The translations under genes were made by a program, and so were the position numbers. Positions 54,293 through 60,375 of a DNA stretch of 64,000 nt are shown here, piece after piece. Origin of the DNA: Collinsella sp. An268 (GTDB lineage Bacteria > Actinomycetota > Coriobacteriia > Coriobacteriales > Coriobacteriaceae). Numbering within the stretch: position 1 is the stretch's first letter; every line of letters begins with the position of its first letter. The stretch covers positions 124,001 to 188,000 of the forward strand of contig NZ_NFJH01000003.1 in the NCBI RefSeq assembly GCF_002159765.1. The letters run 5' to 3'. Below the pieces are notes generated by a model that was not told where the DNA came from, did no database searches, and saw only the letters and a program-made list of their open reading frames with translations.

Positions 54293-55516
54293 ATGGGTCA
54301 CAAACTAACGGAAGAGGAGCAGCGGCTGGTGACCACCACCGCCAAGGTGATCGCCAAGACGCTGCCGGACGAACACCGCGGCAAGGCAAGTGGGATAGCG
54401 AGCGCGCTCGTGCGCCTGCGCAGCAAAACGGTCGAGGCCGACGAGCTCCTGCAGGCCGTTGTGGAGCGCGGGGGCGATGCCGGCTGCTGCGACGCGCTGA
54501 AGGCGGCGCAGGTGGTGGTCGCCCAAGACGAGGGAGGGTACCGCATCAACCTCTCCTCCGCCCCGGACTCGGACAGGCAAAAGACTTCCGCCCCGCAAAA
54601 GCAGATTGCAAAGACCGGCCCCACCACCATCGCGCGCGCCAAGCGTCCCGACCGGTCGCTCGGCCGCCTCAGCTGCGTGCGCCGTCAGACCCCCGAGCTC
54701 ACGCAGGTGCGCAGCCACATCATCGGCCTCGATCCGCGCTTGTGGCTGAATGGCTGGCTCCTCAGCACGCCCGACGCCTTTGTGCGTTACGAGACAGAGC
54801 TGCGGGCGCTTGACGCGGCGCTCGCCGGCAAGCCCGCCCTCGGCGACGGCACCCTGAGCCTGCGCGAGCTCTCGTATCGCATCTTTGGGGACGAGAAGTT
54901 TTTGGCACCCGAGTCCGACGGCCGCAAGCTGCTGCGCCTTATGGGGCTGACCGACCTGCTCAACGTGCGTCCCTCTCTGAGGTTTGACATGCAGTGCTTT
55001 ATGCCCAAACACCACCGGCACGCGCGCTTGGTGGTGAGCGAGAACCTCGACCCCTGGGTCAACATGCGCAACGCCCTCTTTCTGGACGGGCGCAAGCGCA
55101 TCCTCGGCGAGCGCGTGCACGGGGTGGTGTTTGGCAACGGCACGCTCGCGCGGGAGCCGAGCCATCTCGAGCGGCTCGTCGACACCCTTGCCGCCGAGGA
55201 CCTGCACGTTATGTACTGGGGCGACATCGATCGGGCGGGGCTCGAGATTCTGGCGAGCCTTGCGGCGAGCGCGGGGGAGGACGGGCGCGTGACGGTCGAG
55301 CCCTTTATGCCCGCCTACCGGCTCATGCTCAAACGAGCGCAGAAGCGCTACCCCGACCCGCTCTCAAACGAGGAGACCGATCAAGTCAACGTGCCCATCA
55401 CCGGCACCGAGCTGCTCGCCCCCTACCTGACTGAGAGCGAGCTCGCCTATCTTGAGGCCGTCCTCGAAGGGGCGCGCCTCATCCCGCAGGAGTCGGTGAC
55501 CGCAGAGGACCTGTAG
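54293..55516 (+). CDS. JetD-like (Wadjet/DUF2220) TOPRIM protein, orphan
   Basis: A 407-residue protein. The C-terminal 165 residues look like the TOPRIM-type domain of Wadjet JetD (DUF2220): VVSENLDPWV with Glu250, VMYWGDIDRAGLEIL with the acidic pair Asp311/Asp313, and the terminal RLIPQESV, where JetD proteins have a Q-E motif. The N-terminal half is alpha-helical with a winged-helix-like segment (GKASGIASALVRLRSKTVEADELLQ) and SLRELSYRIFGDEKFL, as in JetD. JetA, JetB and JetC partners are absent from the flanks, which encode a cation channel and a beta-lactamase-fold protein. It may cut DNA alone or with distant partners. ATG at 54293 has AAGGGA upstream. Confidence 0.6.
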   Translation: MGHKLTEEEQRLVTTTAKVIAKTLPDEHRGKASGIASALVRLRSKTVEADELLQAVVERGGDAGCCDALKAAQVVVAQDEGGYRINLSSAPDSDRQKTSAPQKQIAKTGPTTIARAKRPDRSLGRLSCVRRQTPELTQVRSHIIGLDPRLWLNGWLLSTPDAFVRYETELRALDAALAGKPALGDGTLSLRELSYRIFGDEKFLAPESDGRKLLRLMGLTDLLNVRPSLRFDMQCFMPKHHRHARLVVSENLDPWVNMRNALFLDGRKRILGERVHGVVFGNGTLAREPSHLERLVDTLAAEDLHVMYWGDIDRAGLEILASLAASAGEDGRVTVEPFMPAYRLMLKRAQKRYPDPLSNEETDQVNVPITGTELLAPYLTESELAYLEAVLEGARLIPQESVTAEDL

Positions 55517-58811: not shown

Positions 58812-58858
58812 TGGTCGGTAGGAGCAGGGTTCGAGCCTATTGCCTCCGGATCACAAGC
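58812..58858 (-). other. tRNA-like 3'-end remnant (GTG anticodon-type)
   Basis: Read on the minus strand, the segment begins with CTTGTGA (anticodon-like GTG), continues through a variable part and a T-arm-like GGCTCGAACCC, and ends CCTACCG-A-CCA. The T-stem and the 5' half are lost. It overlaps the 3' end of the following AlbA_2-type gene, whose last codons lie inside it. This pattern fits an attachment-site scar. Confidence 0.35.
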
Positions 58859-60321
58859 CTATCGGCGGTGGTAAAGCGCTGGCGAGATGACCGCGGCGTT
58901 TCCGGCAGGCTCAGGATGAGCATCCCCGATTCGACCATCGGATTTACATAGCGGCGCATCACATAGGGCGCCTGAGCACCAAGCAGTTCGGCCAGCTCGG
59001 ACCGTGAGCGCGGCTTCTCGGCGCAAAACTCCGCGATCTTGCGCTGCTGCTCGGTAAGCCCCGTATCATCGATTACCGCGATGCATCTCTCCTCCCGAGC
59101 TTGCCTTCCCATCACCGTTACGCGGAACTGCCCGCGCGAGCTCTCGAACACCGGCGCCGGCATCCCCGCCTCCGCCAGCAACCTGCGCACGGTCGGGATA
59201 CCCGAATACCGGTTCTCGGTCTTTCCGAGCGCCTCCATGGCGGTCGCGATCACGGGGTTCCTCGTGTCGGGTTGCATCTTGCCCAAATCATCGACCGTGA
59301 GACGGCCGTAGAGACCGCCCGGATTCACAATCTCCAGTCTTCCGCGATACATCAGGATCTGAATGGGCATGCCCTGCGTATGAACGCTATAATCGCGGTG
59401 GATGAGAGCGTTGAGGATGAGCTCGCGCACAGCTTCGACAGGATACTCGTCCCGGTCGATGCGCTTTCCCGTCCTCGGGTCGACGCGGGTAGCAACCTTC
59501 ATGTTCGACCGCACGAAAGCGAGGGCCTCCGTCAGTTGCTCGTCGAGCGTCCCCTCGATTCTCTTATTGTCGAGGAATCGATTGCCCTCTCCGTCCACAA
59601 CGCCAGGCTCCGTCCCCGGAATAACGGTCGCGACAATACTAAGCTGCGGGAAATAAGCTTGAGGATAGAGCGAAAACAGCATGACGCCCGCTAACGTTGG
59701 AACGCCATCACGCGTGATGCTCATGAGCTCTAGCACGGTATCATCGTCGAGCTGAGCGAGATTGGGTTTAGACGAGGTTATGTTGCTGAGGTAGTGCCCC
59801 AGCTTCTGGGCATCGAGCGTCGATTTCGTCGCACGGTCGACCGGCTCGATCTCGTCGCGGTACTTCTTGCGAAATGCCCCGTAGCTATACACCTCGTATT
59901 CCGTCATGGGCTCGTCGGCATCACCCACACGGACGAACGAGCCCTTGAGCCTGCCCCTTCCCCGGTAGTAGCAAGGCCTATCTGACATATCAATCCCGGG
60001 AATCTCTGCCGAGACGATCATCTTGTCATCCACTGACGCGACCGTAAACACGGCACGGACTGAGGGCTGCATCTGGCTGCATTGCTCCGCGACGTGCTTT
60101 TGAAGATCCTGCGCATCATAGACGCCGACCACCTCAAACCCCTGCCGCTCATCAAGACCGAACACGATGACCCCACCGTCATCCTGGTTCGAGAAGCTTG
60201 ACAGCGTATCGTACAGACGAGACGGACAGCCCTCCTTCGCCGCCTTTACCTCAACAGTCTGCATCTCGCATCGCCGCTCCTGAATCTGATGCACCAGATC
60301 AATAAGGCCCTCGGCCAGCAT
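58837..60321 (-). CDS. AlbA_2/Schlafen-type ATP-binding protein (first copy)
   Basis: A 494-residue protein of the COG2865 type: an N-terminal AlbA_2 (Schlafen-like) domain (about 10-150, TVEVKAAKEGCPSRLYDTLSSFSNQDDGGVIVFGLDE), a GHKL-type ATPase-like part (AVRELILNALIHRDYSVHTQGMPIQILMYRGRLEIVNPGGL) and a C-terminal winged helix. Such proteins act as regulators or are linked to phage defence; biochemistry is limited. GAGAGGAG 7 nt upstream favours the ATG at 60321 over one seven codons earlier. The 55 to 130 bp upstream of this start (60376-60448) carry GTACAA-type operators. Confidence 0.75.
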   Translation of the reverse strand: MLAEGLIDLVHQIQERRCEMQTVEVKAAKEGCPSRLYDTLSSFSNQDDGGVIVFGLDERQGFEVVGVYDAQDLQKHVAEQCSQMQPSVRAVFTVASVDDKMIVSAEIPGIDMSDRPCYYRGRGRLKGSFVRVGDADEPMTEYEVYSYGAFRKKYRDEIEPVDRATKSTLDAQKLGHYLSNITSSKPNLAQLDDDTVLELMSITRDGVPTLAGVMLFSLYPQAYFPQLSIVATVIPGTEPGVVDGEGNRFLDNKRIEGTLDEQLTEALAFVRSNMKVATRVDPRTGKRIDRDEYPVEAVRELILNALIHRDYSVHTQGMPIQILMYRGRLEIVNPGGLYGRLTVDDLGKMQPDTRNPVIATAMEALGKTENRYSGIPTVRRLLAEAGMPAPVFESSRGQFRVTVMGRQAREERCIAVIDDTGLTEQQRKIAEFCAEKPRSRSELAELLGAQAPYVMRRYVNPMVESGMLILSLPETPRSSRQRFTTADRLVIRRQ

Positions 60322-60375
60322 AGCCAGCTCCTCTCGACGCATTCAAACTGATAAGGGTCACTGAGACTATCGTAG

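What the first reader, a model, noticed from the sequence alone, without database searches (positions are those of the whole stretch)
54293..55516. Orphan JetD-like TOPRIM protein without JetA, JetB or JetC
The C-terminal third follows the JetD/DUF2220 pattern (Glu in SENLD, YWGDID, terminal PQES), and the helical N-terminal half is also of JetD type. In Wadjet systems JetD is the nuclease that works with an SMC-like JetABC. Here the neighbours are a TRIC channel gene and a beta-lactamase-fold gene. An isolated JetD could be a stand-alone nuclease, a regulator, or part of an unrecognised system. JetD assignment is inference from motifs.
Basis: partly seen in the sequence, partly recalled or inferred. 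Interest (0 to 1): 0.7.

Follow-up and report, generated by a model that had tools for sequence, protein, structure and literature searches.

The report
Stand-alone JetD nuclease gene lineage
A gut actinobacterium carries the DNA-cutting part of the Wadjet anti-plasmid machine without the loop-extruding motor that normally controls it, and dozens of related species keep the same lone, apparently active gene, so it probably does a job of its own.

Summary
Window 54293-55516(+) encodes a 407-aa type III JetD (PADLOC JetD3 E=2.3e-33; Pfam JetD_C 28 bits, cut-off 22). No JetABC lies beside it. The genome (99.96% complete) has no JetC of type III or type I. It is not a one-off. Of 301 Coriobacteriales genomes, 89 carry a strong JetD3, and only 2 of those carry a JetC3. 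Those two (one complete D-A-B-C operon, one split over contigs) and every readable JetD3 from outside the order (7 of 7) are part of, or sit against, JetABC(D) operons. The lone genes sit next to different housekeeping genes in different genera. The putative catalytic residues E250, D311, D313 and E400 are intact in all lone copies aligned, and dN/dS against a near relative is 0.16. Most lone copies also differ in shape: a private ~95-aa winged-helix-like N-domain and a 34-370-aa disordered linker that Wadjet JetD3 proteins lack. Best reading: a catalytically competent, SMC-independent nuclease of the Top6A/JetD kind that has become a separate lineage, most likely acting on foreign or abnormal DNA. 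Activity, substrate and trigger are untested. Whether all lone clades share one origin is unresolved. Novelty: new variant of a known kind.

The parts
54293..55516 (+). Lone JetD (type III) gene, 407 aa
   Evidence: PADLOC JetD3 2.3e-33, Pfam JetD_C 28.2 bits
54280..54285 (+). AGAAGG, probable ribosome-binding site
   Evidence: read from sequence
54293..54562 (+). N-domain (aa 1-90), predicted winged-helix-like (H-H-H-H-beta-beta), private to this JetD lineage
   Evidence: model; profile hits at the lone JetD loci of the window's clade in 67 family genomes plus three marginal hits; no hit in Wadjet JetD3 except E=8.5 in L060
54563..54646 (+). Disordered linker (aa 91-118, pLDDT<50)
   Evidence: 34-374 aa in lone relatives
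54653..54697 (+). Motif before the helical domain (aa 121-135, SLGRLSCVRRQTPEL), conserved in close relatives
54692..54982 (+). Helical CAP-like domain (aa 134-230) with invariant E201-K202 (GDEK)
55019..55492 (+). TOPRIM nuclease domain (aa 243-400)
   Evidence: Foldseek best hit topoisomerase VI A subunit
55040..55042 (+). E250, catalytic Glu (ExN motif)
   Evidence: invariant in 47/47
55220..55231 (+). GDID, D311 and D313, metal-binding Asp pair
   Evidence: invariant in 47/47
55487..55492 (+). Q399-E400 (PQE), C-terminal Glu motif
   Evidence: Q 45/47, E 46/47, exceptions only in Wadjet proteins

Best explanation
The gene encodes a catalytically competent nuclease of the JetD / topoisomerase VI-A kind that works without the JetABC loop extruder. 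By analogy with solved JetD and MksG structures, two copies would pair through the TOPRIM domains, bind metal through E250, D311, D313 and E400, and cut DNA bent into the cleft. In place of JetABC, a private winged-helix-like N-domain on a flexible linker would select the DNA or hold the enzyme in check. The most likely role is a self-contained defence against foreign or abnormal DNA. SHOWN: JetD3 identity, no JetC3 or type I JetC found, conserved acidic residues, purifying selection, distinct N-terminal architecture, recurrence in 88 genomes. INFERRED: dimerisation, cleavage, the control role of the N-domain and linker, and the defence role.
For: JetD3 profile match. JetC3 head present in only 2 of 301 order genomes, both found at E<1e-90, and absent in the window's genome. 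PF13558 absent and no type I JetC match. JetD3 genes outside the order sit in or against JetABC(D) operons, so the search method does see real systems. Catalytic E/D/D intact in 47/47 and E400 intact in every lone copy. dN/dS 0.16 overall and 0.11 in the C-terminal two-thirds. Private N-domain plus 34-374-aa low-complexity linker in lone copies, against 127-144 aa in total upstream of the core in most Wadjet JetD3. Varied housekeeping neighbours with no recurrent partner. Faster divergence than neighbours: about 55% identity to G002, against PepC 88% and PurB 96%. Patchy presence: 4 of 9 genomes in the genus. Published: MksG alone cuts DNA at high concentration (PMC10123090; PMC10586767), so the fold can act without SMC.
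Against: No activity data. Published Pseudomonas and E. coli JetD strictly need JetABC and ATP (discussed in PMC10123090). Not in a defence island; the position is fixed next to housekeeping genes in Collinsella, which fits a cellular role as well. An unlinked partner too divergent for the profiles cannot be excluded, and type II JetC was not searched separately. The Foldseek hit to Top6A is significant but with low overall TM-score.
Confidence: 0.55

Rival explanations
1. JetD with a swapped motor: the nuclease is activated by the cell's own Smc-ScpAB or another unlinked, divergent SMC complex.
For: All characterised JetD need an SMC motor for specific activity (PMC10586767). The JetC3 profile's weak hit in the own genome (E=2e-4) is at the level of the coiled-coil matches seen in many genomes, so some SMC-like coiled-coil protein is present.
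Against: No linked SMC in any lone neighbourhood. Orthologous neighbours stay while JetD is lost in sister species. The N-domain and linker suggest a different control.
Confidence: 0.22
2. A chromosomal housekeeping nuclease or topology factor (Top6A/Spo11-like) for repair or segregation rather than defence.
For: Single copy at a stable place in Collinsella (CstA side) and between pcrA and the str operon in another genus. Coriobacteriaceae largely lack the SbcC family.
Against: Absent in many sister species (5 of 9 in the genus). Presence does not track SbcC: genus g5 has both, most others lack SbcC with or without JetD. Diverges faster than its neighbours.
Confidence: 0.15
3. A DNA-binding regulator that no longer cuts.
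For: Winged-helix-like N-domain; nuclease-derived regulators exist in general (own knowledge).
Against: All four acidic catalytic positions are intact in every lone copy aligned, which a pure binder would not need.
Confidence: 0.06
4. A decaying relic of a lost Wadjet operon.
For: Lacks JetABC.
Against: dN/dS 0.16, intact frame and catalytic residues, retention in 88 genomes.
Confidence: 0.02

Closest known systems
JetD of type III Wadjet (PADLOC JetD3)
   Same: TOPRIM core, GDEK, ExN, GDxD and PQE motifs, helical domain before TOPRIM
   Different: No JetA, JetB or JetC; private N-domain and long disordered linker; stable chromosomal places
JetD/MksG of type I Wadjet/MksBEFG (solved: 7til, 8b7f, 8q72)
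   Same: Best solved-structure profile hits, over the GDxD region, but weak, E 0.13-0.99; same acidic residues by motif
   Different: Sequence too far for significance; N-terminal half different; no SMC core
Topoisomerase VI A subunit / Spo11
   Same: Best fold match, 9o7o_A, E=4e-4, probability 1.0
   Different: No Top6B partner seen among neighbours; low overall TM-score because domain positions differ; catalytic Tyr of the CAP domain not identified
MksBEF without JetD (P. aeruginosa)
   Same: The mirror case: the SMC core survives without its nuclease (PMC10586767)
   Different: Here the nuclease survives without the SMC core

Membership tests
JetD protein family (type III) | Match to JetD3 / JetD_C profiles | tested here: met
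   PDLC00592 2.3e-33; PF09983 28.2 bits against cut-off 22
JetD protein family (type III) | TOPRIM acidic residues E..DxD and C-terminal Glu | tested here: met
   E250, D311, D313, E400 present and conserved
JetD protein family (type III) | N-terminal DNA-binding/CAP half of JetD type | tested here: inconclusive
   Helical aa 134-230 follow JetD3; aa 1-95 have no sequence match to Wadjet JetD3 (hhalign probability 9%) but a similar predicted order of elements
Wadjet system (JetABCD) | JetA, JetB and JetC in one operon with JetD | tested here: not met
   None among neighbours; no JetC3 or type I JetC in the genome; type II JetC not searched separately
Wadjet system (JetABCD) | Restriction of small circular plasmids by loop extrusion and cleavage | not testable with these tools
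   needs a transformation assay
Topoisomerase VI / Spo11 | Catalytic tyrosine in the CAP domain and Top6B-type partner | not tested
   no Top6B search was run; the tyrosine was not mapped structurally
OLD / Gabija nuclease | ABC ATPase domain fused to TOPRIM | tested here: not met
   No ATPase domain in Pfam scan

The most novel reading that the evidence does not exclude
A lineage of SMC-independent JetD/Top6A-like nucleases in Coriobacteriales in which a private winged-helix-like N-domain on a disordered tether replaced the SMC motor as sensor, giving a one-gene anti-DNA defence.
Probability: 0.3. Interest if true: 0.72.

Novelty: new variant of a known kind. Interest (0 to 1): 0.52.

Why it matters
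Characterised JetD is thought to be kept inactive until a loop-extruding SMC complex delivers it to a small circular DNA. A JetD lineage kept for long periods without any such motor, with its active site intact and extra N-terminal sequence, means either that the nuclease can sense its target by itself or that it has found another controller. That makes the open question of how JetD is switched on testable in a one-gene system. It also flags a likely plasmid or phage barrier in gut Collinsella and relatives that finders requiring JetABC should pass over; in one C. aerofaciens record the gene is annotated as a hypothetical protein. In 5.39 million open papers I found no description of a lone JetD; subscription papers and preprints were not searchable.

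Tried and rejected
Single versus multiple origin of the lone copies: a first test with 36 rows rejected one clade (p 0.0005), but that left out two further lone copies (L045, L070); with them the data do not reject one clade (p 0.21), so no claim is made. Replacement of SbcCD: no co-variation in the family. JetC3 model PDLC00581 on whole genomes rings on coiled coils in 185 of 301 genomes; replaced by a head-domain profile. L045 (Collinsella) looked like a JetD beside a 1222-aa SMC-like protein, but that protein has no Walker motifs and looks like a surface protein. Plasmid and phage collections: no relative of the window protein; viral fold library: nothing significant. Basic-linker idea: net charge of linkers varies from +12 to -40, so dropped. 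Sigma-70 promoter scan: none found. Three further actinomycete hits (L106-L108) were too weak to assign.

Full report
Observation. The gene lies exactly at 54293-55516 (+): ATG at 54293, AGAAGG ribosome-binding site just upstream, 407 codons and a stop. The window is positions 124001-188000 of contig C20 of a 2.37-Mb genome that is 99.96% complete. The nearest genome holding the gene (97% identity) is Candidatus Coprousia avicola, Coriobacteriaceae.

What the protein is. PADLOC's JetD3 model matches residues 141-407 with E=2.3e-33. All 16 PADLOC families that match are JetD models. Pfam JetD_C scores 28.2 bits, above its 22-bit cut-off. The AlphaFold model is confident (mean pLDDT 87.5) except for residues 91-118, which are disordered. 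Its only significant PDB match is a topoisomerase VI A subunit. A profile search of PDB sequences puts JetD and MksG first, but below significance.

Is it really alone? The only JetD_C match in the genome is this one. PF13558, which rings in 12 of 14 control genomes, gives nothing. A type I JetC gives nothing. A profile of type III JetC heads finds the two genuine type III genomes of the order at E=4e-110 and 3e-92, and nothing in this genome. A type II JetC search was not run separately. The neighbours are a PF03458 membrane protein and a beta-lactamase-fold protein, then DUF4013 and C1-peptidase proteins.

It is a lineage, not an accident. Of 301 Coriobacteriales genomes, 100 match JetD3; 11 of these match only weakly, leaving 89 strong (my count). 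All 89 are in two families: f1, the window's family (Coriobacteriaceae), and f5, which includes Thermophilibacter and Olsenella (Atopobiaceae), matched through contig lengths. Only G191 and G266 have JetC3. G191 has a complete D-A-B-C operon (L060). In G266 the D-A end is on one contig (L059) and JetC on another; the same genome also has a second, lone JetD. So 88 genomes hold at least one lone copy. Outside the order JetD3 is rare (6 of about 380 other actinomycete genomes). The ones that could be read sit in or against JetABC(D) operons: L103 and L105 are confirmed by JetA3/JetC3 models, and L104 has a 1531-aa neighbour. Pontibacillus, Rhodococcus, Polaromonas and Streptomyces plasmids show the same gene set by size and order.

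Neighbourhoods. Among about 40 loci the flanks differ between genera and are housekeeping genes: CstA in Collinsella, phosphoketolase or TetR in others, UvrD/PcrA and the EF-G operon in g68, a kinase in g19. No gene recurs as a partner across clades. In sister species that lack the gene, synteny is kept up to the TRIC gene and then changes (L122).

Constraint and divergence. In 47 aligned proteins E201, K202, E250, N251, D311 and D313 are invariant; E400 is missing only in one Wadjet protein. Against the closest relative dN/dS is 0.16, and 0.11 in the C-terminal two-thirds. At greater distance it diverges faster than its neighbours: window versus G002 gives about 55% for JetD, 88% for the peptidase, 96% for PurB, 78% for TRIC. 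In Collinsella the JetD core averages 67% while CstA averages 83% and the phosphoribosyltransferase 90%. Presence is patchy: 4 of 9 genomes of the genus. This looks more like defence than core metabolism, but it is indirect.

A different front end. Wadjet JetD3 proteins have 127-144 residues before the core, apart from L059, whose open frame gives 178 with an uncertain start. Lone copies of clades A and B mostly have 180-570; L050 (125) is cut at its start in my gene calls. Lone copies of the window's clade begin with a ~95-aa domain that no Wadjet JetD3 matches, except one non-significant hit, and then a 34-339-aa linker made mostly of disorder-promoting residues. Collinsella copies share the layout with a weak N-domain match (E 0.02-2) and linkers up to 374 aa. 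A RefSeq entry for C. aerofaciens has the same long start, 723 aa, named hypothetical protein. Clade C (g68) does not match the N-domain. In 67 family genomes the N-domain profile finds the lone JetD genes of the window's clade and three marginal hits. Predicted element order is winged-helix-like both here and in a Wadjet JetD3, so the two N-domains may be distant homologues; profile comparison is inconclusive.

Phylogeny. The lone copies form three well-supported clades (A with the window, B Collinsella, C g68). Whether these descend from one lone ancestor is unresolved: one clade of all non-Wadjet copies is not rejected (p 0.21).

Mechanism proposed. A TOPRIM dimer with a metal site of E250, D311, D313 and E400 cuts bent DNA. 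The tethered winged-helix domain would choose the DNA or restrain the enzyme, replacing JetABC. The residues and architecture are shown; dimerisation, cutting, control and defence are inferred. Published work shows that MksG alone can cut DNA at high concentration, while other JetD need JetABC and ATP (PMC10123090, PMC10586767), so either outcome is possible.

Verdict. It belongs to the JetD protein family (core features met) but is not a Wadjet system (JetABC tested and not found). It works, most likely, like JetD with a different trigger.

Noticed in passing
L060 9209-17125 (G191) and L059/L109 (G266): Divergent type III Wadjet in Coriobacteriales with gene order D-A-B-C (complete in L060, split over contigs in G266); JetA and JetB of L060 match no PADLOC model, JetC matches only weakly.
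   Followed up: partly
L045 3827-18037 (G242): A JetD lies between a gene with type I specificity-like similarity plus a coiled-coil surface protein and a pPIWI-RE island.
   Followed up: partly
L061, L064 (g68): Lone JetD is fixed between a UvrD/PcrA helicase gene and the EF-G (str) operon.
   Followed up: partly
family-wide: Most Coriobacteriaceae genomes, the window's included, lack a clear SbcC-type Walker-B match, unusual among the control genomes.
   Followed up: partly
window 58837-60342: Schlafen/AlbA_2 plus RecG-like HATPase gene a few genes downstream, possible DNA-related regulator.
   Followed up: no
L133 (NZ_OY725717.1): A 900-kb Collinsella aerofaciens record labelled plasmid carries alr and tsaD, so it is probably a chromosome piece; its JetD is called hypothetical protein.
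   Followed up: no
window 55490-55495: The window's C-terminal motif is PQES, whereas nearly all lone relatives have PQEI, PQEV or PQEA.
   Followed up: no
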